Shown piece after piece: positions 4,029 through 22,860 of a stretch of DNA of 64,000 nucleotides. The notes under the pieces are model-generated. The model was not told where the DNA came from and ran no database searches. It saw only the letters and a program-made list of their open reading frames with translations. This DNA is from Scytonema sp. RU_4_4. Its GTDB lineage: Bacteria; Cyanobacteriota; Cyanobacteriia; Cyanobacteriales; Nostocaceae. Numbering within the stretch: position 1 is the stretch's first letter; every line of letters starts with the position of its first letter. Location: contig JAAUSC010000003.1 of assembly GCA_012031965.1 (NCBI GenBank), positions 1-64,000 of the forward strand, read 5' to 3'. A program made the translations under genes and the position numbers.

Positions 4029-5741
4029 ATGAGTAGGTTAGTTGTTTTAAACTTAGGTCAAGGAAACCTACACGAAGGCTGTGCTAGGGTGACGGCACAG
4101 CTTGGAGAAGCAGACAACCCCTACCGGATGAAATTTTCTGCCAGTTTACCAGCAGCACCCAAAATTTATGAACTCTACCAAAATTGGCAGTTAGTTTATT
4201 ATGCTTTTTATCAACGTTTGAGTTGGCGTCTCGATCACGAAATCGATGACAATTTTGAAATTGAAGAAGATTATGTAACTAATATTTCAGAGGCTGATAT
4301 TTATGAGTTGTGTCAATTGTTGTCAAAAAAAATAAATACATGGCTCAACTCAACAAAGTTTCGCAAAATTGACCAGCAATTACGCACGCACTTAAAAACC
4401 TCTGAAGAAATTCGCTTTATTATTGAAACCAACGACAATATATTGCGACGACTTCCTTGGCATCTATGGAAATTCTTTGAGGATTACCCATATGCAGAAG
4501 TGGCGTTGAGTTCAGCAGAGTACCAAAATCCAAATAAATTGGTTATTAAGAACCGCAAAAGTCAAGTCAGAATTTTGGCTACTTTTGGAAATAGTCAAGG
4601 GATTGATATTAGTCATGATAAAAATCTTTTCGAGAGATTATCAACTCAAGCAGAAATTAAGTTTTTGGTAGAGCCGAATCTAAATCATTTAAACGAGCAG
4701 CTATGGCAACAAAGTTGGGATATTCTCTTTTTTGCAGGTCATAGTTTTAGTAAAGAAAAAGGATTTTTGCAAATCAATCAAACAGACACGATTACTCTTG
4801 AGCAGTTAAAATATGCTCTGAGGCAAGCGATTAGTCGTGGGTTAAAGCTAGCGATTTTCAACTCATGCGATGGTTTAGGGTTGGCGCAGGAACTCCAAGA
4901 TTTGCATATTCCACAAGTGATTGTGATGCGTGAGCCTGTCCCGGATGTGGTTGCTCAAGAATTTTTAAAGTATTTTCTGGCAGAGTTTTCGAGTGGAAAA
5001 TCTTTGTACACTGCGGTGCGTTCTGCACGCGAAAGACTGCAAGGATTAGAGGGGGAATATCCCTGTGCAACTTGGCTACCAATGATTTTCCAAAATCCTG
5101 CTGAACCATCTATGATTTGGTCACAGCAAAGTGTATGGACTCAATGGAAAGAGAAGACAGATTCTTCCAGACTGGTTTCCAACGGAAATGCTAGAAGTGT
5201 GCAAACAAACGTCCGATTCCCAGTCGTCGCTTCAGTTCTCTCCAAAACCACGGCTCTCGATTCACTTATTGAGATACTAGATGGCAAGCTTTTGGAATAC
5301 CAGAATCACCCCCTCAATCACAAAGAAATTTTGGTTTTACGAGGTATTTGGCAAAGTCAAACTTACAATCAAATTGCTCAACAGGGGGGCTATAGTCCGA
5401 GCTACTTTACTAGCGTTGTCGCCCGAGGATTGTGTCAAAAATTGTCTCATCTCATCGGCGAGCGTGTGACCAAAAAAAACTGTCGAACTCTATTAGAGTC
5501 GTATGTGACTGCACAAGCTTCTCCAAAAATAATACAACAACAAAATCCTCCTATCAGTTATTTTTCTCATCCCAAACAAGAAATCTTACCTCGCTTTCCT
5601 AGTGGTTTAGTCCCGCTTGGCTCTCCTTATTACATTGAACAACCGGAGATTGTGACACAGGTTTATGAAGAAATTATGAATCCAGGAGCTTTAATTCGCA
5701 TTAAAGCTCCTCAGGAATGGGGAAAACCTCGTTCCTATTGA
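4029..5741 (+). CDS. CHAT protease-HTH protein, N-terminal part of frameshifted CHAT-AAA gene
   Basis: A 570-residue product ending in the wrong frame. A caspase-like CHAT domain occupies about residues 90-370, with the candidate catalytic dyad His238 (FFAGHSF) and Cys280 (FNSCDGL). A linker follows, then at about 410-490 a helix-turn-helix segment (LVLRGIWQSQTYNQIAQQGGYSPSYFTSV) resembling the HTH of cyanobacterial vWA/MoxR-associated ATPases. The protein then enters an AAA-like domain (PLGSPYYIEQPEIV...GALIRIKAPQE), but one base is missing just before the Walker A ATG, so the frame runs into a stop at 5739. The remaining ATPase continues from 5717 in the +1 frame. Joined, the gene would be 4029-6616, about 862 residues. 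CHAT-ATPase proteins are known as effectors in bacterial conflict or cell-death systems; function here is inferred. Confidence 0.85.
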   Translation: MSRLVVLNLGQGNLHEGCARVTAQLGEADNPYRMKFSASLPAAPKIYELYQNWQLVYYAFYQRLSWRLDHEIDDNFEIEEDYVTNISEADIYELCQLLSKKINTWLNSTKFRKIDQQLRTHLKTSEEIRFIIETNDNILRRLPWHLWKFFEDYPYAEVALSSAEYQNPNKLVIKNRKSQVRILATFGNSQGIDISHDKNLFERLSTQAEIKFLVEPNLNHLNEQLWQQSWDILFFAGHSFSKEKGFLQINQTDTITLEQLKYALRQAISRGLKLAIFNSCDGLGLAQELQDLHIPQVIVMREPVPDVVAQEFLKYFLAEFSSGKSLYTAVRSARERLQGLEGEYPCATWLPMIFQNPAEPSMIWSQQSVWTQWKEKTDSSRLVSNGNARSVQTNVRFPVVASVLSKTTALDSLIEILDGKLLEYQNHPLNHKEILVLRGIWQSQTYNQIAQQGGYSPSYFTSVVARGLCQKLSHLIGERVTKKNCRTLLESYVTAQASPKIIQQQNPPISYFSHPKQEILPRFPSGLVPLGSPYYIEQPEIVTQVYEEIMNPGALIRIKAPQEWGKPRSY

Positions 5742-6616
5742 GGATTCTTGAGTATGTGAATCGGAGTGGTTACCATACAGTCAGCTTGAACTTGCAGGAG
5801 CAAGTTGACCGAGCTATTTTGAGTGATTTGAATCGTTTTTTGCGTTGGTTATGTGCTAATGTCTCTCGTCAGCTTCAGCTTGAACCAAGATTAGACGAGT
5901 ATTGGGATGAAGATATTGGTAGTAAAGTCAGCTGCTCGCTTTATTTACGAAATTATGTGTTAGAGCAGATTGATTCTCCTCTGGTTTTGGCGTTGGATGA
6001 GGTACACCAGATTTTTGAACATCCGCAAGTCGCAAAAGAATTCTTACCTTTGTTGCGTTCTTGGTACGAAGATGCCAAAAGACAACCTATTTGGCAAAAG
6101 CTGCGTCTTATTGTGGTTCACTCGACTGAAGTTTATGTTCCTTTGCAGCTCAATCAGTCTCCATTTAATGTAGGATTACCGATTCAGTTAACCTGTTTCA
6201 GTTTAGATCAGGTGCAGCAGTTAGCTCAACGCTTTGAACTCAATTGGACAGATGATGAGGAAGCAAGGCTTCTGATGGACATTGTTGGAGGACATCCTGC
6301 ATTGGTACACCTCACACTTTATCACCTCAGTCGTGGAGAGGTGACTTTGAATCAACTGCTGCAAAATGCTTCTACACCTAAAGGCATTTATTACCATCAT
6401 ATGCAGCGTCATTGGGCAACTTTGCAGGCGCAGCCAGAATTAGCATCTGCTCTTTCTATAGTCATGAATGCGACCCAACCTGTAAAGTTAGAACCTGTTG
6501 TTGCTTACAAGTTAAGCAGTATGGGGTTAATTAAGTTGGATAACAATCTAGCGACACCTAGTTGTCGGTTATATCGACAATATTTTCAGCCGAAGTGTGA
6601 GATAAGTGTTCGTTGA
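5717..6616 (+). CDS. AAA-like ATPase, C-terminal part of frameshifted CHAT-AAA gene
   Basis: 299 residues in a different frame from the upstream CHAT part, overlapping it by 25 bases. It begins exactly in the P-loop (MGKTSFLLRIL); homologous AAA-like (AAA_35-type) domains read ...IKAPRQMGKTSLL, so the first half of the P-loop is in the other frame. Walker B is VLALDEVHQIFE (about residues 88-99). The rest matches the AAA-like/winged-helix body, ending in a short HTH-like region. Supplying one A in GGAATGG (5710-5716) joins both parts with no other change. No good ribosome-binding site precedes the ATG, so independent translation is unlikely. Either a recent inactivating mutation or a sequencing error. 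Confidence 0.85.
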   Translation: MGKTSFLLRILEYVNRSGYHTVSLNLQEQVDRAILSDLNRFLRWLCANVSRQLQLEPRLDEYWDEDIGSKVSCSLYLRNYVLEQIDSPLVLALDEVHQIFEHPQVAKEFLPLLRSWYEDAKRQPIWQKLRLIVVHSTEVYVPLQLNQSPFNVGLPIQLTCFSLDQVQQLAQRFELNWTDDEEARLLMDIVGGHPALVHLTLYHLSRGEVTLNQLLQNASTPKGIYYHHMQRHWATLQAQPELASALSIVMNATQPVKLEPVVAYKLSSMGLIKLDNNLATPSCRLYRQYFQPKCEISVR

Positions 6617-7853: not shown

Positions 7854-8753
7854 ATGGGCGATCCGAATCGACAAGAATATGAAAAAGCACTGATGAGTGA
7901 CGCTCAATCTCTATTCGATGTTTTCCTTTGCCACAATAGCGAAGATAAGGAAGCAGTCATAAAAATTGCAGAGCAATTAAAGTATGAATATAAAATTGAA
8001 CCGTGGCTGGATGAATGGGAGTTACGACCTGGTTTACCTTGGCAGTCGGAACTAGAAAAACAGATTGCTCATATAAAGTCAGCAGCAGTTTTTGTTGGTG
8101 AGAGTGGTATCGGTCCTTGGCAAGAAGATGAAATAAATGCCTTTTTGCGTCAATTTAAGCAACGAAAGTGTCCTGTTATTCCTGTGTTGCTTCGTAATGC
8201 TCCACAACAGCAGCCTCAACTCCCACCTTTACTTGAAGGTATGACTTGGGTTGATTTTCGGGAACAGATACGTGTTTATACTCCTCCAATGGTTAAACTG
8301 GTTTGGGGAATTACTGGGAAAAAGCCAGAGACGATAGTGAAGGTGATCCCACAAAGTCAACCTCAAAACACTCCACAAAATCAAAGAAATGATTCAGGTG
8401 ATGACCTCAGTTCTGAAAAAGGCGTAAACTACACGAAACTGCGAGATTTACTAGCAGCCAAGAAGTGGAAAGAAGCTGACTATGAAACTTACCTAGTGAT
8501 GCTACAAGCTGTCGGGCGCAAGGAAAATGACTACATTAGAGAGGAAGAACTCTTAAACTTTCCCTGCACTGACCTCCGCACAATTGACCAACTTTGGGTA
8601 AAATACAGCAATGGGCGCTTTGGCTTCAGCGTTCAGAAGGAAATTTACCTGAGTGTCGGCGGCAAGCTGGACGGTAAATACTACGAAGAAGCCTGGGAAA
8701 ATTTGGCGATCGCGTGGGATGGAGAGTGGGCGATCGCGTGGGATGGAGAGTGA
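7854..8753 (+). CDS. TIR-GUN4 fusion protein (frameshifted near its 3' end)
   Basis: A 299-residue product. Residues about 20-155 form a TIR domain: FDVFLCHNSEDK (BB-loop side), the long WLDEWELRPGLPWQSELEKQI segment with a glutamate in the usual catalytic position of NADase TIRs, then AAVFVGESGIGPWQ and CPVIPVLL. After a Gln-rich linker, residues about 195-285 form a GUN4 domain: LRDLLAAKKWKEADYET...LNFPCTDLRTIDQLWVKYSNGRFGFSVQKEIY. A missing G at 8705-8706 shifts the frame inside GUN4, and a 24-base tandem duplication follows, so the product ends in a repeated AIAWDGE. GUN4 domains bind porphyrins; TIR domains in bacteria often degrade NAD+ or make nucleotide signals. A tetrapyrrole-sensing effector is an inference. 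ATG 7893 is an alternative start. Confidence 0.85.
   Translation: MGDPNRQEYEKALMSDAQSLFDVFLCHNSEDKEAVIKIAEQLKYEYKIEPWLDEWELRPGLPWQSELEKQIAHIKSAAVFVGESGIGPWQEDEINAFLRQFKQRKCPVIPVLLRNAPQQQPQLPPLLEGMTWVDFREQIRVYTPPMVKLVWGITGKKPETIVKVIPQSQPQNTPQNQRNDSGDDLSSEKGVNYTKLRDLLAAKKWKEADYETYLVMLQAVGRKENDYIREEELLNFPCTDLRTIDQLWVKYSNGRFGFSVQKEIYLSVGGKLDGKYYEEAWENLAIAWDGEWAIAWDGE
8706..8753 (+). repeat. 24-base tandem duplication in the GUN4 region
   Basis: Two copies of GCGATCGCGTGGGATGGAGA plus GTGG (8706-8729 and 8730-8753; the last base differs). In the ancestral frame each unit reads GDRVGWRV, a core GUN4 motif, so the duplication itself keeps frame; only the loss of a G just before it breaks the gene. 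Confidence 0.85.
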
Positions 8754-9331: not shown

Positions 9332-9817
9332 ATGTCTGATTTGTCGGCTGCTCAGACTAATCCGTTGCTTGGAACTTGGAGGCTAATCTCAGCGATCGCC
9401 ATCAATCCTGATGGGACAGTGATTCCTCAAGTGTATGGTCCTAACCCAATCGGCTACATCACTTATACAGCCGAGGGGCGGATGATGGTCGTCTTTTCAA
9501 AGAGCGATCGCCCACCCTTTAGTGAAGATATTCGCACACCATTCAGCAAAAACATTTGCTCTTTACCGACAGAGGAATGTGTGCAGGCGTTTTCTACATT
9601 CAATGCTTATGCAGGGACATACACGTTGAATGGAAACACGGTCACTCATCACGTCGAAGTAGCATCAATTCCCAATCGGATTGGCAAGGATTTAGTCCGA
9701 ACGTTCATGTTGAATGGAAATCGAGTCACGCTAAGAACGCCACCGACTAACACAGATGGAGTCCTCAAGGTCTTTGAACTGTTGTGGGAACGTGTGGAGC
9801 ATGCTGTATCAAAATAG
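9332..9817 (+). CDS. Lipocalin-like domain protein
   Basis: A 161-residue soluble protein of the Lipocalin_5 type. It starts MSDLSAAQTNPLLGTWRLISA, the GTW turn of lipocalin-like barrels, then NPIGYITYTAEGRMMVVF and the antiparallel strands YAGTYTLNGNTVTHHVEVASIPN and RTFMLNGNRVTLRTPP, ending KVFELLWERV. AGGAGTGAG lies just before the ATG. No signal peptide is seen. Likely binds a small hydrophobic ligand; the ligand is unknown. It stands alone between repeat-rich spacers. Confidence 0.85.
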   Translation: MSDLSAAQTNPLLGTWRLISAIAINPDGTVIPQVYGPNPIGYITYTAEGRMMVVFSKSDRPPFSEDIRTPFSKNICSLPTEECVQAFSTFNAYAGTYTLNGNTVTHHVEVASIPNRIGKDLVRTFMLNGNRVTLRTPPTNTDGVLKVFELLWERVEHAVSK

Positions 9818-10308: not shown

Positions 10309-13300
10309 ATGACCAACATAATCCCAATGTCCATTCTGACTGTTCGCCAGGAAGAGCTCTCAGATACTCAGATGATTGTTGATGGAACAATACCAAATGA
10401 TTTATCTGGTCATATTTTTCTCTTAGCTCCTGTAGGACACGTAGATTCTAAACGAGATGGTGCTCTTGTCTTTCCATCTAAAGATGGTACTCCACTGTTT
10501 AATGGCAATGGAATGATTTATCGGCTTGATTTTGACAAGCCTGGGACAGTAGGGTTAAAGTCCAAGATTGCTAAAACGCCGTGCTACTATGCCGATGACG
10601 CAACAAAACCAGGAAGTGAATATCAAGAGTATGGCTTCCGCAATTTCGGCTTGGCGCGTCTCTCAATCTCGCTAGGTGTTCGCAGTGTCGCAAATACAGC
10701 ATTGGTACCTCTGAAATTTGCGGGCGAAGATGAGCGTATGCTGGTGACTTGTGATGTGGGGCGTCCCTACGAAATCGATACGCATTCTCTTGAGGTTGTC
10801 ACGCCTATCGGATGGAACAAAGAGTGGAGAGAACAGTTACCAATTCATCTTCCTTTTGAAATGGTGATGAATACAGCGCATCCTTTCTTTGATGCTCATA
10901 CCAATGAGATGTTCACAGTTAATTATGGTAAGTCATTACCGACTTTTTTATCAACCATCTTCAAATCTGAGGTAGGAAAGTTATCATCAGCCTTCAAAGG
11001 AATGATTGAAAGGTTTGCGAAATTACCAGAAGAAAAGCAGAATATAAAAAACTTAGAAATCGAAAAAGAGATTCCTAGGGAGCTTTTCAATAAAGAAACT
11101 GATGAAAGTTCAGAACGTGTCAAGAGTTTTTGGCAAAGATTGCGAGAACTGCTCAAAAGAGAGAAAGAAGAACAAGAACAACAAGAAGAGAATGAAGGAA
11201 ATGCTCGCGAACTGTTAAGTGAACTCAAACAACTGATGATAGTCGTCAAACAAATGATGGAAGGATTGGATGAGTTTGACGATTTTGTCTATCTCATGCG
11301 CTGGGATGGTAAAAGTGAGTTTGAAAGATGGGAGGTGAAGCTTCCTAATGGTTCACCAGTTAAAATTAGGCAGACAATACATCAAATTGGTGTCACGCAG
11401 GATTATGTAGTGTTGATGGACACTGGCTTCAAAGTTGGTCCAGAGCAACTGATTACCAAACCAGTGATTAAAAATAAAAAGCTACAAAAACTATTCAGAG
11501 AGGTACTGAATGAGCCAGTATCATCTGAAATGTGCTTATATATCGTGCGTCGTGCTGATCTAAAAGCCGGAGAACGCCCCGCATTAGGTCAAAACAACGT
11601 TGAGGTTGTTGCACAAAAGGTGGTGATACCTGGGGGGGTGATTCATTTTCAGGTTGATTATGACAATCCTCAAAACCAGATTGTACTTCACGTTGCTCAT
11701 AGTTCTGCCTGGGATGTGTCTGAATGGGTGCGGGAGTATGACATAACTTCTCTTTTAGCTTCAAACTCAATAGCTTCAAACTCAAACCGTCCGGTGGGAA
11801 TGATGTCTGGTCCTGTAGATATTCACTCCCTAGGACGATATGTGATTGATGCTCAGACAGGGAAATTGGATGAGGGACTGTCTAAGGTGATTAGCGATCG
11901 CGATCTGACTTGGGCTATTGCGATCAGCGCTTACAACGAGCACACCACCTCGAAAAAGCTCGATAATATCTACTGGAACTCTTGGGGATGCTCACCAGAT
12001 CTGTTACCCGATTTCATTGTTAACCTATATGAAAATTATCCTGGTCGGAATTTACCGATGGAGGAAGTCAAGAAAATAACACAAGAAACCAGACCTGCAA
12101 ACATATGTCGGTTAGTCACAGACTCTAAAGAAGGGATGGCGATCGCCGACAATTACAAGTTCCAACCAGGGTACTTTGGTAGCTCAATTCAGTTTGTACC
12201 ACGAACTCACAGTGATGGTAGCTCAACTGATGGCTATATCGCGTGTACAGTTCTGTCTGACAAAAGCGAAATCTGGATTTTTGACGCCAAGAATCTCGCT
12301 CAAGGTCCCCTTTGTAAATTAAGCCATCCCCAACTCAAGTTTGGATTTACCACCCACACCACTTGGTTACCCAAAATTGCACCCCGCACCAATAGCTACT
12401 ACATCCCTGTGCGTGAGGATTATAAAGACCTGGTGGAAAAACAAAATCGTGAAATCCAGAAACTCTTTGAGGAAGCTGTTTACCCCAATTTTCCCACAGC
12501 TTGGGCGTCTGTTCCTGATTCAGTTCTCGACGCTAGTCGCCAAGAACTCGACATCAAACTGAATATTCTTGAGTCAAAATTGCCAGACAAAAAACTACCA
12601 GAGGGACTGCACGGTCATGTTTTTATTATGGGTCCAGTGGGTTCTCTTAATTCTGGCGGTCTTCCCTACAGTAATGGCGATCCAATCTTCAATAGTGATG
12701 GGATGATATACCGACTCGACTTTAATCAGAAGGGAGAAGTTGGTTTAAAAACTCGGATCACTAAACCACCATGTTACTACGCCGACATGGCAACTCAACC
12801 TGGAACCAAATATGCTAAGTATGGATTCCGTAATCTTGGAATTTCACGATTCTCCACTCAGTTAGGTACTCGCAACCAGTTGAATACTGCTTTTGTGTCA
12901 ATATATGGTGGAGAAGAACCTGAACGCTTATTAATCAGTTGTGATGCTGGTCGTCCCTACGAGATTGATAGCGAAACTCTTGAAGTTGTCACGCCTGTTG
13001 GAACAAACAAAGAGTGGCGTCCAGAGATTAAGCTGAAGTTTCCGTTTCCACCTGTTCTGACAACAGCGCATCCCGCTTTTGATGCTCAGACTCGTGAGAT
13101 ATTCACTGTCAATTATGGTCGGTCGTTGTCAAATTTCCTGGAAACCATACCTTCGATTAACGAATTGGATAAATTTCTTGATGAAGTTGAGGAATTTTTG
13201 GAAAAAGGCTTTTTAAAAACCTTTTCTCAGGTTTCTTACAAACTTCGTCAATTACATCACAGATTTGTTTCAAAAACTGCCAATTTCATACCTCAAGACT

Positions 13301-14544
13301 TTGTTTATCTCATCCGTTGGGATGGCGTTGGTTATCTTGAGCGATGGAAGTTGGTACTTCCGGATGGAACTCCTGTTGAGATTGAGCAATCTCTGCATCA
13401 GGTTGGAATCACGAGAGACTATGTTATCCTCATAGACACAAATTTCAAAGTTGGAATTGCTCAAGCATTCAACAATCTTTTTCCAAATAACAAGAAAGTA
13501 GAGAGACTCACAAGAAAATTACTCACACTACCAGTGTTACCTGATACGACACTTTATATTGTCAGCCGTGCAGACTTGAAAAACGGACAACGCCCAGAAG
13601 TGAGTCAACAGGAAGTTAAAGTTGTCGCGCAGCAGATAATTATTCCAGAGGGTACAATTCACTTTGCATCAGATTACGAAAATCCTGACAACAAAATTAC
13701 GCTCCACGTAACCCATAACAGTGCTGATGTCGCTGAGTGGGTGCGCCAGAGTGACAATTTAGCCTCTAACTCCGAAACACCCGTAGCATCAAATCTAGTC
13801 GGTATGCTCACTAGCGTGACAGATGTTAGCCGTTTAGGTCGCTACGTTATTAATGGTGAAAGTGGAGAGATTCTTGAGTCAAATGTGTTATCTAATTCCA
13901 GGTACACTTGGGGAGTCGGACTTTACACTTACTGTGATAGATTATCAACAGGTCTACCTTCAGGGCAGTTAGAAAATATTTACTGGCAGTCTTCAGGATT
14001 TTGGCAAGAGCTATTCACAAAATTTATCTTTGATTTATACAAAGATAACCAAAATCGGATAGTGTCACCTAAGAAACTACTTCAAGCAAACAATAGACAA
14101 AACAGACCTTCTTGTTTATTCCGTCTAAATACAACAGACATGAAAATTGCTGACGCTTATGAATTTCCTGTCACGTTAGAAGACGAGAAATGGAACAGCC
14201 ATATGATTCTGTCTCCACAGTTTGTACCCCGCGCTAATGGTGATGGTAGTTCAACAGATGGTTACATTGTTTGTACCGTTGCTTCAGAAGACGGCGACGA
14301 AATCTGGATTTTTGATGGCAAAAATCTTGCTCAAGGACCTCTTTGCAAACTTGGTCATCCCTGTTTGAATTTCAGTTATACAATACACACAGCCTGGTTA
14401 CCAAAAATAGCACCTCGTACAGCTAGTTATAACTGTCCCGTGCGCGAAGATTATCAAGAGCAAGTGGAGAACAATTCTCAAGATATTCAGGATTTGTTTG
14501 AGACGGAAATTTACCCGTATTTTGAGGGAAAATCAGCTAAGTGA
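10309..14544 (+). CDS. Double carotenoid oxygenase (tandem RPE65/CCD-family domains)
   Basis: A 1411-residue protein made of two full copies of a carotenoid cleavage oxygenase-like seven-bladed propeller, about residues 25-725 and 780-1405. Each copy keeps all four candidate Fe(II)-binding histidines in order: H191 (TAHPFFD), H358 (HQIGVTQDY), H446 (VIHF) and H683 (TTHTTWLP) in the first; H921, H1030, H1118 and H1360 in the second. Both start with GH.F...PVG and end with APRT.SY..PVREDY. The first copy has an extra Lys/Glu-rich coiled-coil-like insert (about 245-315). No signal peptide or membrane segment. The family cleaves double bonds of carotenoids, apocarotenals or stilbenes with O2; the substrate is unknown. 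The two halves are clearly diverged, so the fusion is not a recent assembly artefact. Confidence 0.9.
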   Translation: MTNIIPMSILTVRQEELSDTQMIVDGTIPNDLSGHIFLLAPVGHVDSKRDGALVFPSKDGTPLFNGNGMIYRLDFDKPGTVGLKSKIAKTPCYYADDATKPGSEYQEYGFRNFGLARLSISLGVRSVANTALVPLKFAGEDERMLVTCDVGRPYEIDTHSLEVVTPIGWNKEWREQLPIHLPFEMVMNTAHPFFDAHTNEMFTVNYGKSLPTFLSTIFKSEVGKLSSAFKGMIERFAKLPEEKQNIKNLEIEKEIPRELFNKETDESSERVKSFWQRLRELLKREKEEQEQQEENEGNARELLSELKQLMIVVKQMMEGLDEFDDFVYLMRWDGKSEFERWEVKLPNGSPVKIRQTIHQIGVTQDYVVLMDTGFKVGPEQLITKPVIKNKKLQKLFREVLNEPVSSEMCLYIVRRADLKAGERPALGQNNVEVVAQKVVIPGGVIHFQVDYDNPQNQIVLHVAHSSAWDVSEWVREYDITSLLASNSIASNSNRPVGMMSGPVDIHSLGRYVIDAQTGKLDEGLSKVISDRDLTWAIAISAYNEHTTSKKLDNIYWNSWGCSPDLLPDFIVNLYENYPGRNLPMEEVKKITQETRPANICRLVTDSKEGMAIADNYKFQPGYFGSSIQFVPRTHSDGSSTDGYIACTVLSDKSEIWIFDAKNLAQGPLCKLSHPQLKFGFTTHTTWLPKIAPRTNSYYIPVREDYKDLVEKQNREIQKLFEEAVYPNFPTAWASVPDSVLDASRQELDIKLNILESKLPDKKLPEGLHGHVFIMGPVGSLNSGGLPYSNGDPIFNSDGMIYRLDFNQKGEVGLKTRITKPPCYYADMATQPGTKYAKYGFRNLGISRFSTQLGTRNQLNTAFVSIYGGEEPERLLISCDAGRPYEIDSETLEVVTPVGTNKEWRPEIKLKFPFPPVLTTAHPAFDAQTREIFTVNYGRSLSNFLETIPSINELDKFLDEVEEFLEKGFLKTFSQVSYKLRQLHHRFVSKTANFIPQDFVYLIRWDGVGYLERWKLVLPDGTPVEIEQSLHQVGITRDYVILIDTNFKVGIAQAFNNLFPNNKKVERLTRKLLTLPVLPDTTLYIVSRADLKNGQRPEVSQQEVKVVAQQIIIPEGTIHFASDYENPDNKITLHVTHNSADVAEWVRQSDNLASNSETPVASNLVGMLTSVTDVSRLGRYVINGESGEILESNVLSNSRYTWGVGLYTYCDRLSTGLPSGQLENIYWQSSGFWQELFTKFIFDLYKDNQNRIVSPKKLLQANNRQNRPSCLFRLNTTDMKIADAYEFPVTLEDEKWNSHMILSPQFVPRANGDGSSTDGYIVCTVASEDGDEIWIFDGKNLAQGPLCKLGHPCLNFSYTIHTAWLPKIAPRTASYNCPVREDYQEQVENNSQDIQDLFETEIYPYFEGKSAK

Positions 14545-14588
14545 ACTGTTGAAATTGTTGGATGGTAATTGTTGACAATACCATTTCC

Positions 14589-14742
14589 CTCGTTCTCTCG
14601 TTTTCTCGTTCTCTCGTTCTCTCGTTCTCTCGTTCCCATGCTCTGCATGGGAATGCCTATAAGGAGGCTCTGCCTCCGAATAATTATATTGAGGCAGAGC
14701 CTCAAGTTATGCATTCCCTGGCTCTGCCAGGGAACGAGAAAT
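14589..14742. repeat. CTCGTTCT tandem repeat followed by palindromic repeat cluster
   Basis: 14589-14633 is a run of TCTCGTT-type units. It joins a set of hairpins: CCCATGCTCTGCATGGG, GGAGGCTCTGCCTCC, GAGGCAGAGCCTC and TTCCCTGGCTCTGCCAGGGAA followed by CGAGAA. The last three match the repeat at 1-96. It lies between the carotenoid oxygenase gene and the kinase operon and could act as a transcription or mRNA-processing boundary. Confidence 0.8.
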
Positions 14743-14796: not shown

Positions 14797-17700
14797 ATGA
14801 TTACAATTCCTGGCATTGAAATTACCAAGCACATCTATGAAAGTGCTAATACCCTGGTTTATCGAGGTCTCCGAACTCAGGATAAAAAACCTGTTATTCT
14901 CAAGGTTTTGAACAAGGAATATCCTACTTCAGAGGAACTAGCTAAGTATAAGCAGGAATTTGAAATCATTAGCTCGTTAAATATGCCTGGAGTGGTAAAG
15001 GCATACTCTTTAGTCAAATATCAGAGGACTTTAGTCATTATTTTAGAGGATTTTGGTGGTGAATCTTTAAGAGTTTTAAGAAATGCTAGAAAGTTAACAC
15101 TAGCAGAAGTTCTCTTAATTGCTATACAAACTGTTGATAGTTTAGCAAGAATACACTCTGCGAACATTATCCATAAAGATATTAATCCCTCCAACATCGT
15201 TTTTAACTCAGAAAATGGTGAAGTTAAACTTATTGATTTTGGTATTTCTACAGTTTTCTCCCAAGAAAAATTCAGTCTTGAAAATGTCAATTTTTTAGAG
15301 GGTACCCCAGCTTATACTTCGCCAGAACTCACTGGTAGAATGAATCGTTCATTTGATTATCGTACTGATTTTTACTCTCTAGGAGTAACTTTTTATGAAC
15401 TCCTAACCAATCAACTGCCTTTTGAAACGACTGATTTAATGGAGTTAGTACATTGTCATATTGCTAAACAACCTGTACCTCTCCATGAAATCAATCCAGA
15501 AATTCCCCTGGTGATTTCCAATATTGTTATGAAATTATTGGCTAAAAATGCTGATGATAGATATCAAAGTGCTTGGGGAGTTAAAGCAGATTTAGAAGAA
15601 AGTTTACTCCAACTCCAGGCAAACGGTGAAATTTCAAACTTACCTATTGCTTGCCAAGATATTTCTAATAAATTTCAAATTTCTCAGAAACTCTATCACA
15701 GGGAGCAAGAAATTGAAACTCTACTGAAGGCGTTTAAGAGAGTCAGTCATGGAAACTATGATACGCCTAATAGAAGTGAAATGATGCTGATATCTGGATA
15801 TTCAGGCGCTGGGAAATCAACCTTAGTTCAAGAAGTTTATAAATTCCTGACTCAGCAGCAAGGTTATTTCATTTCTGGCAAGTTTGAAGAATTTTATCGC
15901 CATATTCCCTATTCAGGATTGATTCAAGTTTTTCGGGAGTTAATCAAGCAATTATTAACCGAAAGTGAATTACAGATTAATCAATGGAGAGAAAAATTGT
16001 TAGAAGCATTTGGACCTAACGGTCAAATGCTTATTGATGTCATTCCTGAAATAGAATTAATTGTTGGTCAGCAATCGTCAGCTCCTGCATTGTCATCGAT
16101 AGAATTTCAAAATCGCTTTAATTTAGTCTTTCAAAACTTTGTGAAAGTGTTTACTCAACCAGAACATCCGCTTGTCATATTTCTGGATGATTTACAGTGG
16201 GTAGATAGCGCTTCAATGCAATTGATACAACTGCTGATGACAGCAGAGAATAGCCAGTATTTGTTTTTCATTGGTGCGTACCGTGATAATGAAGTGGGTG
16301 CAAACCATCCATTGATACTAACGTTAGATAAAATCCAAACATCAGGGACTGTTGTAAATTATCTTCATCTTTCTCCTTTGGATGTGCAAAATGTTAGCCA
16401 GTTGATTGTAGATACCTTCAATTGCTCTTTAGAACGAGGAAAACCTCTAGCAGAATTAATCTTTCGTAAAACGAATGGTAATCCTTTCTTTATCAATCAG
16501 TTTTTGCAATCACTTTATCAAGAAAAACTGTTATATTTTGATTTTTCTTATCTTACGTACGAAGGAAAATGGCAATGGAATTTAGAGCAAATTCAAGCGC
16601 GGGACTTTACAGATAATGTTGTTGAACTCATGGTTAGCAAGATTCAAAAGTTGTCCCCTGATACGCAAGAGGTATTGAAGTTAGCAGCTTGTATAGGTCA
16701 TCAATTTGATATTCAGACAATAATAGATGTCAATCAAAAATTACCGCAAGAAACACTGATTTCGCTGCATGAAGCAGTTGCAGAAGGTTTCGTTATGCCC
16801 TTGAAAGATGCCTACAAGTTGATTGCTCCAGATTTGTCACAACAAAAAGAGCATAATATCAAAACTGAATACAAGTTTGCTCATGACAGAATTCAGCAAG
16901 CAGCGTATTCTTTGATTCCGCCAGAACACAAAAGCGCCGTTCACCAAAAGGTGGGTCAAATTTTGCTGCAAAATACTCCACAAGATAAACGTGAACGGAA
17001 CATTTTTGATATCGTCAACCAATTGAATTTGAGCATTGAATTAATCAATCATCAGTCAGAGCGAGATGAACTGGCTATACTTAATTTAATGGCTGCTCAA
17101 AGAGCAAAAAATGCAGTTGCTTACGAACCAGCATTGAGATATCTAAAAATCGGCATAGAATTATTAGCAGAAAATAGCTGGCATAAGCAGTATAACCTAA
17201 CACTGGCGTTGTTTTTAGAGGCAACAGAAGCAGCATATCTCAACACTAACTTTGAGGAGATGGAGAGACTGGCTGAGGTAGTACTGTGTAACGCAAAAAA
17301 TTTGCTGGACACAATAAAAGTCTATGAAGTTAAAATTCAAGCTTATATGGCACAGAATCAGCCACTACAAGCTTTAAAGATTGTGTTACCTGTCGTGAAA
17401 ATTTTGGGAGTGAAATTTCCGGAAAAACCAAATCAATGGAATATTTGGATTAGTTTTTTAAGGACAAAGATATCTTTGGCTGGACATCGAATTCAAGATT
17501 TCATTGATTTACCGGAAATGACTGACCCCTACAAACTCGCAGCTATAGACTTATTATCTAGAGTAAGAGTTGCTGCATATCTGGCTTCTCCTCAACTATA
17601 TTCACTCATTGTATTTCAAGAAATTAATTTATTAGTTAAATATGGAAATACTTTTGACTCTGCTTTTGTCTATGCTGCTTACGGGATGATTCTCTGTGGA

Positions 17701-20265
17701 GTCGTGGGAGATATTGATTCTGGGTATCAATTTGGTCAACTTGCTATGCAGATTTTAGATAAGTTCAATATAAAACGTAAAGAGAATCGGGTATTGCATC
17801 TGATGAATGGTTTTATCAGACATTGGAAAGAGCATGGAAATCAAACATTACAACCATTGGCAGAAACTTATCAAATGGGAGTAGAAAATGGAGATTTCGA
17901 GTTTGGCAGCTATTCAGCATTTATGCATTGTTTCAATTCATATTGCGTTGGTGAAAACTTGAGAGAAACTGAGCAGCATATCTGCTCATATAGTCATGCG
18001 ATGAATAGGCTAAAACAACAAACTATATTGAATTATCTAAAAATTCTACATCAAGGAATTTTGCAATTAATGGAGAAATCAGATGGTGAAGATTGTGGTC
18101 AATTAGTAGGTGAAAAATACGATGAAAGAATAATGCTTCCAATTCATTTTGAAGTTAACGACCATACCGCAATTTGCAATGTTTATTTACACAAAATGAT
18201 GAATTGTTATTTCTTTCATAATTATCCAGAAGCTATTAAAAATGCAACTATACTTCAACAGTATTTAGCGAGTGTTACAGCATCACTTCTTGTTCCTCTA
18301 TTCTATCTTTATGATTCTTTAGCGCGGCTCGCTGTTTTCGGTGATGTTTCTAAATCAGAACAAAAACATATTTTCAAGCAAGTTATCAATAACCAGAAGA
18401 AAATTAGGAAATGGGCACATCATGCTCCGATGAATTATCTACACAAATTTTATTTGGTGGAAGCTGAACACGCTCGTGTATTAGGCAAAGATAAAGAGGC
18501 TAGAGAATATTATGATCGTGCGATTGCTTTAGCACATGAGAATGAATATCTTAACGAAGAAGCCCTCGCCTACGAACTCGCAGCCAAGTTTTATTTAAAC
18601 AGAAACCAAGACCATGTTGCTCGCCACTATCTGCAAGATGCTCACTACACTTATCAACTTTGGGGCGCTACAGCCAAAGTAAAAGATTTGGAAGCGCAAT
18701 ACCCACAATTTCTAAGTCAAGCTAATAAAGGTTATCTTAAGACGACTTTATCCACTTCAACAACGGGGCACAATACGTCTCATGTCTTAGATTTTCAAAG
18801 TGTACTTAAAGGAACACAAACGATTTCCGGCGAAATCATTATAGACAAGTTACTAGCAAAGTTAATGAAAATTGTGATTGAGAATGCAGGAGCCCAAAAA
18901 GGGTTTCTAATTCTGCATTCTCAGGCGGAGCCAGGGAACGAGGAAGAAGAGAACTGGGTTATCGAAGCTACAGGAACTGCGGATTCTGATGAAGTTAACA
19001 TTCTGCAATCAATACCCATAGAATCACTCAATACCGAGACTCAAATTCCCCTCTTATCAGCCGCTATTATCAATTATGTCGCCCGCACTCGGGAAAATGT
19101 GGTTTTAAATGATGCTGTCCATGAAGGACAATTTACACGTGACTCCTACATTGTCACTACTCAAACCAAATCTATTCTCTGTACTCCCTTATTGTATAAA
19201 GCCAAACTCAGCGGCATTTTATATTTGGAAAATAATCTCACAACAGCCGCATTTACTCCAGAACGTGTCGAAGTCTTAAGAATTCTTTCTGCTCAAGCCG
19301 CCATCTCGATAGAAAATTCCCGTCTCTACGAGCAGTTAGAGGGTTATAGCCGAACTCTGGAACAAAAAGTAAAACAGAGAACTCAAGAATTACAACAGAA
19401 GAATCAGGAGTTAGCAAGTCTGTTGCAAAAGCTTAAAGCTACACAGTCTCAGATTATCGCACAAGAGAAATTAGCTTCTTTGGGAGCTTTGACAGCAGGG
19501 ATTGCTCATGAAATCAGGAATCCCTTAAATTTTGTTAACAATTTTGCTGAACTTTCCGTAGAGTTAACTCAGGAACTGCTTGAAGAGATTGAAAGTCAAA
19601 AAGACCGATTAGACTCAGAATCTAGAGAGTATATAGAAGAAATATTAAATAATCTTAAACAAAACACTCAAAAAATCAATGAACATGGCACAAGAGCAGA
19701 TAATATAGTGCGTGGGATGCTCATGCACTCACGGGGGCAAACTGGCGCTCCACAACTGACTGACATTAACGCTCTGCTAGCAGAAGCTGTTAGTTTAACT
19801 TATCACGGAATGCGTGCCAAAGACGCTTCCTTCAACATCAACATAGAAACTGAATATGATGATAACCTTGGCGGGCTCAGTATCATACCACAGAGTATGA
19901 GTCGTGCTTTTATAAATATCATTAATAACGCTTGTTATGCAGCATGTAAAAAGAAAAAGCGTTTGTACGCTGAGCTAACACAGGAGGGTGAGGAATTTTC
20001 GCCTATACTTTTTGTTAGAACGAAAGATCTGGGTGAGCAAGTAGAAATACACATCCGAGATAATGGCGAAGGGATTCCTCAGAAAGTGCTAGATAAAATT
20101 TTTAATCCTTTTTTCACTACCAAACCGCCTGGTGAGGGAACTGGATTGGGTTTATCTATTACTCATGATATTATTGTCCAGCAGCATCAAGGAGATATCA
20201 GGGTGGAAACAGAAGTGGGTAGTTATACAGAGTTTATCATTACTCTACCCAAACTAGCTTCCTAA
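14797..20265 (+). CDS. HstK-type dual Ser/Thr and histidine kinase with AAA and GAF domains
   Basis: An 1822-residue multidomain signalling protein. Residues about 10-265 are a Ser/Thr kinase (ATP lysine K36 in VILK; catalytic D128 in IHKDINPSN; DFG at 147-149). Residues about 300-650 are an AAA ATPase (Walker A GYSGAGKS 334-341; FLDDLQWVD as Walker B). About 700-1300 is an alpha-helical TPR-like region, about 1335-1515 a GAF domain, then a coiled coil, HisKA with phospho-acceptor H1571 (AGIAHEIRNPLNF) and HATPase (DNGEGIP, GEGTGLGLSI). This is the cyanobacterial HstK plan. The GAF domain contains an in-frame piece of the palindromic repeat (about residues 1374-1385). It is first of a three-gene operon with two receiver proteins that may receive its phosphate; the signal is unknown. 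Confidence 0.93.
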   Translation: MITIPGIEITKHIYESANTLVYRGLRTQDKKPVILKVLNKEYPTSEELAKYKQEFEIISSLNMPGVVKAYSLVKYQRTLVIILEDFGGESLRVLRNARKLTLAEVLLIAIQTVDSLARIHSANIIHKDINPSNIVFNSENGEVKLIDFGISTVFSQEKFSLENVNFLEGTPAYTSPELTGRMNRSFDYRTDFYSLGVTFYELLTNQLPFETTDLMELVHCHIAKQPVPLHEINPEIPLVISNIVMKLLAKNADDRYQSAWGVKADLEESLLQLQANGEISNLPIACQDISNKFQISQKLYHREQEIETLLKAFKRVSHGNYDTPNRSEMMLISGYSGAGKSTLVQEVYKFLTQQQGYFISGKFEEFYRHIPYSGLIQVFRELIKQLLTESELQINQWREKLLEAFGPNGQMLIDVIPEIELIVGQQSSAPALSSIEFQNRFNLVFQNFVKVFTQPEHPLVIFLDDLQWVDSASMQLIQLLMTAENSQYLFFIGAYRDNEVGANHPLILTLDKIQTSGTVVNYLHLSPLDVQNVSQLIVDTFNCSLERGKPLAELIFRKTNGNPFFINQFLQSLYQEKLLYFDFSYLTYEGKWQWNLEQIQARDFTDNVVELMVSKIQKLSPDTQEVLKLAACIGHQFDIQTIIDVNQKLPQETLISLHEAVAEGFVMPLKDAYKLIAPDLSQQKEHNIKTEYKFAHDRIQQAAYSLIPPEHKSAVHQKVGQILLQNTPQDKRERNIFDIVNQLNLSIELINHQSERDELAILNLMAAQRAKNAVAYEPALRYLKIGIELLAENSWHKQYNLTLALFLEATEAAYLNTNFEEMERLAEVVLCNAKNLLDTIKVYEVKIQAYMAQNQPLQALKIVLPVVKILGVKFPEKPNQWNIWISFLRTKISLAGHRIQDFIDLPEMTDPYKLAAIDLLSRVRVAAYLASPQLYSLIVFQEINLLVKYGNTFDSAFVYAAYGMILCGVVGDIDSGYQFGQLAMQILDKFNIKRKENRVLHLMNGFIRHWKEHGNQTLQPLAETYQMGVENGDFEFGSYSAFMHCFNSYCVGENLRETEQHICSYSHAMNRLKQQTILNYLKILHQGILQLMEKSDGEDCGQLVGEKYDERIMLPIHFEVNDHTAICNVYLHKMMNCYFFHNYPEAIKNATILQQYLASVTASLLVPLFYLYDSLARLAVFGDVSKSEQKHIFKQVINNQKKIRKWAHHAPMNYLHKFYLVEAEHARVLGKDKEAREYYDRAIALAHENEYLNEEALAYELAAKFYLNRNQDHVARHYLQDAHYTYQLWGATAKVKDLEAQYPQFLSQANKGYLKTTLSTSTTGHNTSHVLDFQSVLKGTQTISGEIIIDKLLAKLMKIVIENAGAQKGFLILHSQAEPGNEEEENWVIEATGTADSDEVNILQSIPIESLNTETQIPLLSAAIINYVARTRENVVLNDAVHEGQFTRDSYIVTTQTKSILCTPLLYKAKLSGILYLENNLTTAAFTPERVEVLRILSAQAAISIENSRLYEQLEGYSRTLEQKVKQRTQELQQKNQELASLLQKLKATQSQIIAQEKLASLGALTAGIAHEIRNPLNFVNNFAELSVELTQELLEEIESQKDRLDSESREYIEEILNNLKQNTQKINEHGTRADNIVRGMLMHSRGQTGAPQLTDINALLAEAVSLTYHGMRAKDASFNINIETEYDDNLGGLSIIPQSMSRAFINIINNACYAACKKKKRLYAELTQEGEEFSPILFVRTKDLGEQVEIHIRDNGEGIPQKVLDKIFNPFFTTKPPGEGTGLGLSITHDIIVQQHQGDIRVETEVGSYTEFIITLPKLAS
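18914..18945 (+). repeat. Palindromic repeat fragment inside the kinase GAF domain
   Basis: GCATTCTCAGGCGGAGCCAG followed by GGAACGAGGAAG corresponds to the GCATTCCCTGGCTCTGCCAG/GGAACGAGAA unit of the intergenic repeats at 1-96 and 14589-14742. Here it is read as HSQAEPGNEEEE between FLIL and NWVIEA, two strands that are normally joined by a short loop in GAF domains. Confidence 0.65.
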
Positions 20266-20280: not shown

Positions 20281-20655
20281 ATGAAAATAATGGTTGTAGA
20301 CGATGAACAAGATGTTCAGTTTTTGTTTGAGCAAAAATTTAGAAAAGAACTCAAACAAAATCAGGTTAGCTTATGTTTTACCCTGTCAGCAGAGGAAGCA
20401 CTGGAAAAAATCCAAAGTCAAAGTCAGCTAATAGAATGCCTATCCTTGATACTAGCAGATATTAATATGCCTGGGATGAATGGGTTAGAATTACTCAAAA
20501 TTATCAAAGAAAATTTTCCTTATTTAAAAGTTTTTATTATTACTGCTTATGATGATGAATATAATTACTTAATAGCCAAAAAATATGGGGCTGATGAATA
20601 TATTACAAAGCCAATTGAATTTAACAAACTGAAGGAAAAAATTTTTACTGTGTGA
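20281..20655 (+). CDS. CheY-like single-domain response regulator
   Basis: A 124-residue lone receiver domain: acidic pocket D7-D8 (MVVDDEQ), phospho-acceptor D60 in LILADINMPGMNG, Thr/Ser switch in VFIITAYDD and the conserved lysine in YITKPIE. It has no output domain, so it probably acts as a phosphorelay carrier or by protein contact. It starts 15 bases after the HstK-like kinase stop with GAAAGAGAAA before the ATG, so it is almost certainly co-transcribed and a likely partner of that kinase. Confidence 0.93.
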   Translation: MKIMVVDDEQDVQFLFEQKFRKELKQNQVSLCFTLSAEEALEKIQSQSQLIECLSLILADINMPGMNGLELLKIIKENFPYLKVFIITAYDDEYNYLIAKKYGADEYITKPIEFNKLKEKIFTV

Positions 20656-20679: not shown

Positions 20680-22860
20680 ATGCCAGCTAAAATACTGGTT
20701 GTGGATGATGAGCCTGACTTAGAACCGCTCCTTTGTCAGGCATTTAGAAAAAAAATTCGGCAAAAGCAATTGCAATTAATTTTTGCCCAAAATGGTTTAG
20801 AAGCACTAGAAAAACTGCAAGCCGAACCGGATATAGATATGGTATTAACTGATATCTATATGCCAGAAATGGATGGACTTACTTTACTGACTAAACTTCA
20901 TGAGTTATATCCCATCATTAAAGCAGTCATTATTTCTGCCTATGGCGATATAGAAAATATCAGAACGGCGATGAATCGGGGTGCTTTTGACTTCCTGACT
21001 AAGCCAATAAATTTTCAGGATTTAGAAATTACGACCAACAAAACTCTGCAACATGTGCAGCGGATGAAAGCAGCACATGAACAGGAGCGTTTAGCACAGC
21101 AGGCTCAGGCAGAATTATTAATTCGTTTACAACAAGAAGTGACTGAACGCCAGCGAGCAGAGGAAGCATTGCGCGAAAGTGAGCGAAGATTGGCTCAATT
21201 TCTAGAAGCTGTACCAGTCGGAATATTTGTCGTTGATGCCAACGGCCAACCCTACTATACTAATCAGACAGGTCAGCAGATACTTGGTAAGGGAATCGTC
21301 ACCGAAGTGACAGCTACTCAATTTCCCGAGATTTATCAAGCTTATCTAGCGGGGACAAAGGAGTTATACCCCGTTGAACAGCAACCTATTTTACGAGCTT
21401 TGAATGGCGAAAGTGTAACCGTCGATGATATAGTGCTCCAGCAAACTGACAAAATCATTCCCTTAGAGGTGTCCGCTACCCCAATTTATGACGAGAAGGG
21501 GAAAATTATCTATGCCATAGCTGCTTTTACTGATATCACCCAACGCAAACAGGCGGAAGCCGAACGGATTCAGTTTACTCAAGAATTGGCTGGTAAAAAC
21601 GCAGCCTTGCAGCAAGCAAAAGATGCATTAGCCGAGTCCAATTGTAGCTTGGAACAAAAAGTTGAGGAGCGGACTCGTCAACTGTCTCAAACATTAGAAA
21701 TTCTTAAAGCGACTCAAGCTGAACTGGTTTTTGAAAACGCTTTGCTTAGAAGTGCAGAACAATCCTCAACCTTTGATTACCAAGTTGGGGGTAGTTTACC
21801 GATGAATGCTCCCACTTATGTGGTACGTTCCGCAGATCGTCTCCTCTATCAAGCACTCAAGCGCGGAGAGTTTTGTTACATTCTGAATGCACGGCAAATG
21901 GGTAAGTCAAGCCTCATGGTACACATGATGCATCATCTCCAGCAAGAGGGGTTTAGCTGTGCAGCGATTGATATCACTCGCCTTGGTTCTGAAAACGTCA
22001 CTCCTGCTCAATGGTATAAAGGATTTGCTGTGGAGTTATGGCAAAATTTTAACTTGTTTGGAAAGGTGAATCTAAAAGCGTGGTGGAATGAGCAAAAAGA
22101 TTTATCTTCTATTCAGTGCTTGAGTCGGTTTATAGAAGATATCATACTCACTCAAGTTGAAAGTGAAAAAATATTTATTTTTGTCGATGAAATTGATACT
22201 GTCTTGGGTTTGAATTTTCCTGTTAATGACTTTTTTGCTCTCATTCGCTTCTGCTTCAATCAACGCAGTATTAATTCAGAGTATCAACGTTTAACTTTTG
22301 CTCTGTTTGGAGTTGCAACTCCTTCAGATTTGATAACTGATCATCAGAGAACGCCCTTCAATATTGGTCAAGCAATTCAACTAAATGGCTTTCAAATTCA
22401 TGAAGCTCAACCTTTGCTTTCTGGGTTGACAGAGAAAGTGAGTCATCCACAAGTCGTGCTCAAAGAAGTGTTAGCCTGGACAAGCGGTCAACCTTTTCTC
22501 ACTCAAAAGTTGTGTAAATTCATACGCTGTTGCTCATCTCCTATTCCTACAAACAGTGAAGCGCAATGGGTTGAGGATTTGGTGCAAAATTATGTGATGA
22601 AGAATTGGGAATCTCAGGATGAGCCAGAGCATTTGAGAACTATACGCGATCGCATTCTCAATAGCAAGCTGAAATCATCTAGGCTACTAGAAATATATCG
22701 ACAAATTTTGTCTCAAGGAGAAGTCGTCTCTGTTGATAGTCCAGAAGAAAAAGAGTTACTGTTGTCAGGGCTAGTCGTCAAGCAACAGGGTTCTTTAAAA
22801 GTGCATAACCGTATTTATGAATTGATATTTAATAATAGTTGGATTAATCTGCACCTTTAA
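20680..22860 (+). CDS. Response regulator-PAS-AAA-like ATPase fusion
   Basis: A 726-residue protein. Residues 1-125 are a receiver domain with phospho-acceptor D58 ([13 protein letters not shown]) and lysine in LTKPINF. A coiled coil (about 125-165) leads to a PAS domain (about 165-295, with [13 protein letters not shown] at its end) and a second coiled coil (about 295-350). Residues about 360-725 are an AAA-like (AAA_35-type) ATPase with Walker A ARQMGKSS (403-411), Walker [12 protein letters not shown] and the [11 protein letters not shown] segment. AAA-like domains of this type are usually joined to WD40, CHAT or CHASE2 parts; joining to a receiver suggests that phosphorylation controls a STAND-like switch (inference). 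Third gene of the operon, 24 bases after the CheY-like gene. Confidence 0.88.

What the first reader, a model, noticed from the sequence alone, without database searches (positions are those of the whole stretch)
10309..14544. Double carotenoid oxygenase with two complete four-histidine sites
The usual enzyme is a single domain; here two diverged full domains are joined, each with its own His quartet (191/358/446/683 and 921/1030/1118/1360). This could give two sequential cleavages of one carotenoid (e.g. both ends) in a single chain. The highly charged insert only in the first domain may control access or partners.
Basis: partly seen in the sequence, partly recalled or inferred. Interest (0 to 1): 0.6.

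Follow-up and report, generated by a model that had tools for sequence, protein, structure and literature searches.

The report
Fused twin carotenoid-oxygenase beside signalling kinase
A filamentous cyanobacterium joins two related carotenoid-oxygenase-type enzymes into one protein, and in many related species such enzymes sit next to a large signalling kinase, which hints that they make or read a chemical signal.

Summary
One 1411-aa ORF (10309-14544 +) holds two complete RPE65/carotenoid-oxygenase domains, 43% identical, each with its His quartet. It is no artefact: the fused gene recurs in other genomes, and both halves are under purifying selection (dN/dS 0.15-0.24).

(1) Neither half is an ordinary carotenoid oxygenase. 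They belong to a diverged subfamily that keeps the four His ligands, replaces two second-shell glutamates (to Asp and Ser), and carries a helical insert in both halves. (2) The halves come from two paralogous groups, A and B, encoded as adjacent A-then-B genes in at least seven other genomes; the fused A halves form one clade, so one fusion event is likeliest. (3) 72 of 101 fetched A/B loci have an HstK-type kinase gene within 1.5 kb, 63 of them downstream on the same strand; 14 of 17 third-clade loci instead have a WD40-type gene upstream. (4) One third-clade protein is separately fused to an ordinary apocarotenoid-15,15'-oxygenase.

Best reading: a two-site polyene-cleaving oxygenase whose product is read by the neighbouring kinase. 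Oxygenase chemistry is likely; substrate and signalling are inferred. New variant of a known kind.

The parts
10309..14544 (+). fused A-B carotenoid-oxygenase-like protein, 1411 aa
10309..12513 (+). N half (clade A domain), residues 1-735
   Evidence: profile hit 2-733; clade A; AF2 pLDDT 87.8, pTM 0.90; Foldseek to ACO/CAO1/NOV1
12514..14541 (+). C half (group B domain), residues 736-1411
   Evidence: profile hit 733-1409; group B; AF2 pLDDT 88.6, pTM 0.90; VIA Z 25.9 to NOV1
10879..10881 (+). His191 codon, predicted Fe ligand 1 of N half
   Evidence: His in 128 of 129 domains
11380..11382 (+). His358 codon, ligand 2 of N half
   Evidence: His in 129 of 129
11644..11646 (+). His446 codon, ligand 3 of N half
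   Evidence: His in 128 of 129
12355..12357 (+). His683 codon, ligand 4 of N half
   Evidence: His in 126 of 129, 2 of the others gaps in truncated rows
13069..13071 (+). His921 codon, ligand 1 of C half
13396..13398 (+). His1030 codon, ligand 2 of C half
13660..13662 (+). His1118 codon, ligand 3 of C half
14386..14388 (+). His1360 codon, ligand 4 of C half
10939..11280 (+). helical charged insert between His1 and His2 of N half (residues 211-324, 114 aa, 20 K/R, 25 D/E)
   Evidence: block pLDDT 59-84 over most of it
13126..13293 (+). shorter helical insert at the same place in C half (residues 940-995, 56 aa)
14797..20265 (+). HstK-type (cbSTKIII) kinase, 1822 aa: Pkinase, AAA_16, GAF, HisKA, HATPase_c
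   Evidence: kinase of the same blastp cluster or a fragment of one near 72 of 101 A/B loci
20281..20655 (+). response regulator receiver protein directly after the kinase; possible output partner
   Evidence: its blastp cluster is present at 5 loci (cluster 8)
20680..22860 (+). receiver-PAS-AAA_35 protein, same strand, 24 nt further on
   Evidence: membership in the same unit is inferred
9332..9817 (+). lipocalin-like protein (Lipocalin_5) upstream; also near the fused gene in G002 and G006
   Evidence: link to the system is only suggestive

Best explanation
The ORF is a fusion of two paralogous, diverged carotenoid-oxygenase-type domains (type A then type B). SHOWN by sequence and model: both halves are complete RPE65-fold domains with a conserved four-His site; adjacent unfused A-B gene pairs exist and the fused A halves form one clade; genes of both types recur beside HstK-type kinase genes. 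INFERRED: each half binds Fe(II) and cleaves a double bond of a hydrophobic polyene (a carotenoid or apocarotenoid most likely), the two sites acting in sequence or on both ends of one molecule. INFERRED, weaker: the product, an apocarotenoid-like small molecule, or the loaded oxygenase itself, is sensed by the kinase encoded next door (through its GAF or AAA region), which passes the signal through its His-kinase part to the response regulator encoded at 20281-20655.
For: Ligands intact in 126-129 of 129 domains, and the Thr that I take for the iron-occluding residue (position recalled; the role is in PMC12051055, passages read) kept in 117 of 129. Models close to ACO, NOV1, LsdA and CAO1. 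dN/dS 0.15-0.23 (N half) and 0.15-0.24 (C half) in the 10 pairs of 5 fused orthologues. Among domains put in the tree, many genomes show only B (45) or only A (20), and 18 show both (based on fetched regions, not on whole-genome absence), which suggests that each domain can work alone. Adjacent A-then-B genes: G045, G115, G058, G676, G701, G702, G358. Kinase or kinase fragment within 1.5 kb in 72 of 101 A/B loci, 63 downstream on the same strand, median gap 137 nt, 6 gaps negative. Expected rate 0.3-4.3% from kinase counts in ten genomes (those counts are lower bounds, since only 47 candidates per genome were scored). Kinases at these loci are not one clade (8 changes, at least 5 forced by well-supported branches), so the pairing seems to have arisen repeatedly. 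A separate fusion (G403, 1252 aa) joins a third-clade domain to an ACO-like enzyme, 540 bits to Synechocystis ACO; ACO takes apocarotenals but not beta-carotene (PMC5133782, passages), so an upstream cleaving partner would make sense.
Against: No activity, metal or substrate data. Two second-shell glutamates are replaced (Asp in 128 of 129, Ser/Thr in 128 of 129), which could lower or change activity. 29 of 101 A/B loci show no kinase (at least L043 and L048 are cut by contig ends), and 0 of 17 third-clade loci have one. The fused gene of G077 has no kinase next to it, nor has the Bernardetia relative. The 252-nt gap in the window holds repeats, and co-transcription is unproven. Adjacency does not show that the kinase reads the product.
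Confidence: 0.5

Rival explanations
1. Sensor, not enzyme: the RPE65-type domains have become ligand- or oxygen/iron-binding input modules for the kinase and no longer turn over substrate.
For: Frequent partnership with kinase, WD40-type or AAA_35 genes; Ser at one second-shell position and Asp at another.
Against: All four ligands and the putative occluding Thr are kept over deep divergence; the top Foldseek hit of the C half is an ACO Glu150Asp mutant structure, so that change is compatible with the fold; one member is fused to an ordinary ACO-type enzyme.
Confidence: 0.25
2. Ordinary metabolic pair: two oxygenases degrade or tailor polyenes and the kinase merely regulates their use; no signal molecule is involved.
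For: FAD enzyme gene 6-77 nt downstream of the B gene in 6 loci; the one tested is related to 2b9w (recalled as a polyunsaturated fatty acid isomerase, named 'putative aminooxidase' in the tool); 29 of 101 loci without a kinase.
Against: The commonest neighbour clusters are signalling proteins; but I identified only some of the clusters, so other pathway genes may have been missed.
Confidence: 0.2
3. Non-carotenoid substrate: stilbenoid, lignin-derived or other aromatic alkenes.
For: Highest structural Z to NOV1, LsdA, LSD4; best NCBIfam hit is lignostilbene dioxygenase NOV2, far under cut-off.
Against: Z to ACO is only about 1 lower, a near tie; 92 bits against a cut-off of 650.
Confidence: 0.2
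4. Assembly or sequencing artefact joining two genes.
For: Draft assembly of 400 contigs.
Against: Halves only 43% identical; fused frame in G002, G005, G006, G011, NIES-4073 (titled nearly complete), and more distantly G077 and G373; purifying selection on both halves.
Confidence: 0.01

Closest known systems
RPE65 / carotenoid cleavage oxygenase superfamily (PF03055), e.g. Synechocystis ACO 2biw, NOV1 5j55, CAO1 5u8x
   Same: Fold, order of four His ligands, putative occluding Thr
   Different: about 650-850 aa per domain, not ~480; helical insert between His1 and His2 (6-9 aa in 10 ordinary ones; medians 78 in A and 67 in B); second-shell Glu to Asp and Glu to Ser; LHxAH motif after His3; fused in pairs
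Ordinary cyanobacterial enzymes ACO (Diox1/NosACO), NosCCD (NSC1), NSC3
   Same: Same superfamily and phylum; two other RPE65 genes are in the same genome, one of them in two pieces
   Different: About 30% identity over short stretches to the ordinary oxygenases of relatives; the passages of PMC5133782 that I read mention no fused or kinase-linked one
Lignostilbene dioxygenases (NCBIfam NF053780, NF053778)
   Same: Best NCBIfam match; nearest structures by Z
   Different: Scores far below curated cut-offs
HstK / cbSTKIII kinases (PMC2176072, passages read)
   Same: The neighbouring gene has Pkinase, GAF, HisKA architecture
   Different: No oxygenase partner is mentioned there ('carotenoid' occurs 0 times in the main text)

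Membership tests
RPE65 / carotenoid oxygenase superfamily | PF03055 profile match above curated cut-off | tested here: met
   226.7 bits against 27
RPE65 / carotenoid oxygenase superfamily | four metal-binding His | tested here: met
   both halves; 126-129 of 129 domains per column; metal binding itself not tested
RPE65 / carotenoid oxygenase superfamily | propeller fold of the superfamily | tested here: met
   AF2 models with Foldseek E about 1e-20 to ACO, NOV1, CAO1; blades were not counted
RPE65 / carotenoid oxygenase superfamily | three second-sphere carboxylates (Glu/Asp) bonded to three of the His (PMC12051055) | tested here: inconclusive
   one column Asp (128/129), one column Ser/Thr (128/129), third not reliably aligned to ordinary enzymes
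RPE65 / carotenoid oxygenase superfamily | oxidative alkene cleavage | not testable with these tools
   needs enzymology
ordinary cyanobacterial carotenoid oxygenases (ACO, NosCCD, NSC3) | ~480 aa, no insert, Glu at the two aligned second-shell positions | tested here: not met
lignostilbene dioxygenase (NF053780/NF053778) | curated NCBIfam cut-off | tested here: not met
   92.3 against 650 and 56.5 against 800 bits
HstK / cbSTKIII kinase (neighbour gene 14797-20265) | Ser/Thr kinase plus GAF plus HisKA in one chain | tested here: met
   class as in PMC2176072

The most novel reading that the evidence does not exclude
A dedicated apocarotenoid (or other polyene-derived) signalling system of multicellular cyanobacteria: a diverged oxygenase subfamily, sometimes as an A-B fusion, makes a lipophilic messenger that is read by a co-encoded HstK-type kinase, or in a sister clade works with a WD40-type signalling protein.
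Probability: 0.3. Interest if true: 0.8.

Novelty: new variant of a known kind. Interest (0 to 1): 0.58.

Why it matters
Biological roles of bacterial carotenoid oxygenases are not well established (PMC5133782, passage), and HstK-type kinases are numerous in filamentous nitrogen-fixing cyanobacteria (PMC2176072, passage) with inputs that are, to my knowledge, mostly unknown. A repeated, mostly strand-matched link between a diverged oxygenase subfamily and these kinases gives a concrete input hypothesis that can be tested with single-gene deletions. The A-B fusion suggests that the two paralogues work as a physical pair. The natural Glu-to-Asp and Glu-to-Ser second shell is a ready test of how the four-His iron site is tuned.

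Tried and rejected
Artefact: rejected (fused in several independent assemblies). 'Degenerate second half': rejected (all ligands kept, dN/dS below 0.25). 'Charged insert only in the first domain': rejected. 'G045 pair is one stop codon away from fusion': I wrote this in notes; the junction shows two in-frame stops (TAA, then TGA) between A and the B start, so it is only an adjacent same-frame pair. 'Fused proteins of the A-B kind arose several times': not supported. The fused A halves form one clade (support 100). For the fused B halves, one search gives one set together with the unfused B gene of G358 (94) and leaves the order inside open; one search separates them from G358 at 94. G403's fusion is another event with a different partner. 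'B is a clade': FastTree says so (94), but IQ-TREE leaves the B lines and A in one unresolved fork, so A may have arisen inside B. Defence system: PADLOC gave no hit to the oxygenase at 1e-10; its hits to the kinase are generic kinase matches. Third second-shell carboxylate: alignment to ordinary enzymes too poor to call. Plasmid places (4 records): Fischerella NIES-4106 has a kinase gene 137 nt downstream; Bernardetia (Bacteroidota) and Nostoc ATCC 53789 have none annotated nearby; the Kovacikia record has no annotation. Literature searches (listings only, except passages of PMC2176072, PMC5133782, PMC12051055) listed no title on a double-domain carotenoid oxygenase or an oxygenase-kinase operon; the library lacks most subscription papers.

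Limits of counts: only 3 candidates per genome were scored, only 5, so the genome tallies are lower bounds. Outside cyanobacteria only the plasmid collection was searched with a broad method (the genome-contig scan finds close relatives only). The 118 loci (101 + 17) are regions I chose to fetch from the hits (plus the window and L038), not all hits; I left out many lower-scoring or near-duplicate ones. Some of the 101 hold only fragments of a family gene, and two (L155, L169) fall outside A and B in the tree. From the count I dropped L040 (same sequence as L184) and L058 (remote). From the trees I dropped domains covering under 520 profile positions and the ordinary half of L096. 'Kinase' at other loci means membership of a blastp cluster with the window's kinase, or a blastp fragment of it; only the window's kinase was scanned with Pfam. 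Likewise only one WD40-type gene (L167) and one separate AAA_35 gene (L119) of those clusters were scanned. The name vMAP in notes and script labels is recalled. The 23 non-adjacent kinases are biased to relatives of the window's kinase.
Full report
OBSERVATION. The ORF 10309-14544 (+) reads 1411 aa without a stop. Pfam finds RPE65 (PF03055) at 226.7 bits. In an alignment of 129 family domains and 10 ordinary carotenoid oxygenases, the ligand columns are His in 128, 129, 128 and 126 of 129 (the exceptions are the remote L058 and two truncated rows) and in 10 of 10 ordinary ones. AlphaFold models of the halves have pLDDT 87.8 and 88.6, pTM 0.90 each. The 50 PDB hits listed by Foldseek for each half are, by their titles, oxygenases of the carotenoid/stilbene/RPE65 kind, and VIA-align gives Z 25.9, rmsd 3.3, 435 residues to NOV1 for the C half.

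NOT AN ARTEFACT. Full-length fused orthologues are in G002, G005, G006 and G011, in Brasilonema sp. UFV-L1, Scytonema sp. NIES-4073 and S. hyalinum (some of these are the same genomes as the G handles), and more distantly in G077 and G373. G006's contig has the length of the UFV-L1 contig, and G006 is of the window's genus, so the window is probably from Brasilonema (inference). In that genus group, besides the window, G002, G005 and G006 have the fused gene, G004 has a fragment, and G001 and G003 show no family match at E 1e-60. Among 5 fused orthologues, dN/dS is 0.148-0.232 for the N half and 0.153-0.243 for the C half in the 10 pairs; the N insert is looser, 0.14-0.66. The window also carries ribosomal protein L2 and L5, SecY and RpoA genes, so it is chromosomal.

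A DIVERGED SUBFAMILY. Family domains have an insert between His1 and His2: 114 aa in the N half, 56 aa in the C half; medians 78 in clade A (minimum 48) and 67 in group B (minimum 31); shorter in the remaining 20 rows (median 34, and only 8 in L169); 6-9 aa in 10 of 10 ordinary enzymes. The column of ACO Glu150 is Asp in 128 of 129 (Glu in L170) and Glu in 10 of 10 ordinary ones. The column in the 'EPxFVPR' motif, recalled as ACO Glu426, is Ser/Thr in 128 of 129 with one gap, Glu in 10 of 10 ordinary ones, and aligns with Glu in NOV1. The third carboxylate could not be aligned safely. Carotenoid oxygenases are described as using a four-His cluster, three of them bonded to second-sphere carboxylates (PMC12051055, passages). 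A Thr that I take for the occluding residue is kept in 117 of 129. A pair of further His (LHxAH; 461 and 464) is kept in 112 and 121 of 129 and absent from the 10 ordinary ones.

DISTRIBUTION. With a profile of 17 domains at E 1e-60, 91 of 388 genomes of the order, 18 of 386 of the phylum sample (14 of them the window's own genome or others of its order, 4 same class) and 39 of 217 of the family matched. These are lower bounds, as only 3, 3 and 5 candidates per genome were scored. A Bacteroidota plasmid (Bernardetia) carries a single-domain relative at 34% identity; other phyla were not surveyed.

HISTORY OF THE FUSION. A FastTree of 129 domains splits into clade A (42 rows), B (67 rows) and 20 others, mostly a third clade of 17. 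The 7 N halves of A-B fusions are in A as one clade (100). The 7 C halves are in B, in a set of 8 with the unfused B gene of G358 (94), the order inside unresolved. An IQ-TREE check on 54 rows (6 fusions) gives 100 for the N halves, 94 for the C halves alone and 98 for clade A, but does not resolve B as a clade against A. G077 and G373 are sisters in both halves. Unfused A-then-B neighbours occur in G045, G115, G058, G676, G701, G702 and G358; G045, G058 and G676 group together on both sides. So an old tandem pair, fused once, is the simplest reading. Same-type tandem pairs also exist (A-A in G300 and G175, B-B in G245). Among tree rows, 45 genomes showed only B, 20 only A, 18 both (3 of these also a third-clade row), 2 B plus third, 1 A plus third and 14 others only; this reflects fetched regions, not whole-genome absence.

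NEIGHBOURHOOD. An all-against-all comparison of flanking ORFs gave one dominant cluster, ~1800-aa kinases at 73 loci, 71 of them with one within 1.5 kb. Counted on 101 A/B loci, with fragments allowed, 72 have it within 1.5 kb: 63 downstream on the same strand, 7 upstream same strand, 2 upstream opposite; 29 have none; median downstream gap 137 nt. With 1-27 strong matches to this kinase per genome in ten genomes (lower bounds, 47 candidates scored each), the expected rate is 0.3-4.3% (the binomial figure there ignores shared ancestry and should not be quoted as a probability). The kinases are not one lineage: 41 form one clade (support 87), and the label needs 8 changes, 5 of them forced by starred branches; the window's kinase belongs with those of the fused lineage including G373, apart from the 41. 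So the link seems to have been made repeatedly. The window's kinase has Pkinase, AAA_16, GAF, HisKA and HATPase domains, the cbSTKIII/HstK architecture (PMC2176072, passages). A receiver protein follows 16 nt later. Third-clade loci have 0 of 17 kinases, but 14 of 17 have a gene of the WD40-type cluster within 1.5 kb upstream on the same strand. A gene of the AAA_35 cluster lies within 1.5 kb of 20 A/B loci, 16 of them upstream on the same strand.

SUBSTRATE HINTS. In G403 a third-clade domain is fused to a complete ordinary oxygenase, 460 bits to PF03055 and 540 bits to Synechocystis ACO; in G400 the same two kinds are neighbours 71 nt apart. A search of the ORFs of the fetched loci with a profile of ordinary oxygenases found no other separate ordinary oxygenase next to a family gene. 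ACO accepts apocarotenals but not beta-carotene (PMC5133782, passages), so a partner that makes apocarotenals would fit. Six B loci have an FAD amine-oxidase-family gene downstream, 6-77 nt away; the one tested (L046) has 2b9w as its only PDB relative under 1e-8, recalled as a polyunsaturated fatty acid isomerase. Both point to lipophilic polyenes; neither proves it.

MECHANISM. Shown: fusion, two intact sites, A-B pairing, kinase linkage. Inferred: Fe(II)-dependent double-bond cleavage at both sites, coupled on one substrate; product or protein state read by the kinase and passed to the receiver. I give about 0.7 to enzyme activity of at least one half, about 0.5 to a functional link with the kinase through the oxygenase or its product.

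NOVELTY. The fold and site are known; the subfamily, its paired fusion, its altered second shell and its kinase linkage I did not find in print (searches; listings only). New variant of a known kind.

Noticed in passing
L096:2502-6260 (G403), L158 (G400): Separate fusion of a diverged third-clade domain to an ordinary ACO-type oxygenase; the two are neighbouring genes in G400.
   Followed up: yes
L046, L097, L170, L180, L181, L185: FAD amine-oxidase-family gene 6-77 nt downstream of the B gene; the one tested (L046) has only 2b9w as PDB relative.
   Followed up: partly
window 4029-6616: CHAT plus AAA_35 protein split over two overlapping ORFs (AAA_35 profile 1-44 in one, 42-330 in the other): frameshift or sequencing error.
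   Followed up: no
window 7854-8753: TIR domain joined to a GUN4-like domain in one 299-aa protein.
   Followed up: no
window 14560-14740: Gap between oxygenase and kinase holds a short tandem repeat and several GC-rich palindromes; perhaps a mobile repeat element.
   Followed up: no
L055 (G004): Same-genus genome with only a fragment of the fused gene but a full-length kinase ORF next to it: probably recent decay.
   Followed up: no
L228:8992-11199 (Bernardetia plasmid): Single-domain relative in Bacteroidota, 34% identical, without a kinase annotated nearby.
   Followed up: partly
G000:C351:21280-22658: An ordinary RPE65 gene of the same genome is reported as two pieces in two open frames: possibly broken.
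   Followed up: no
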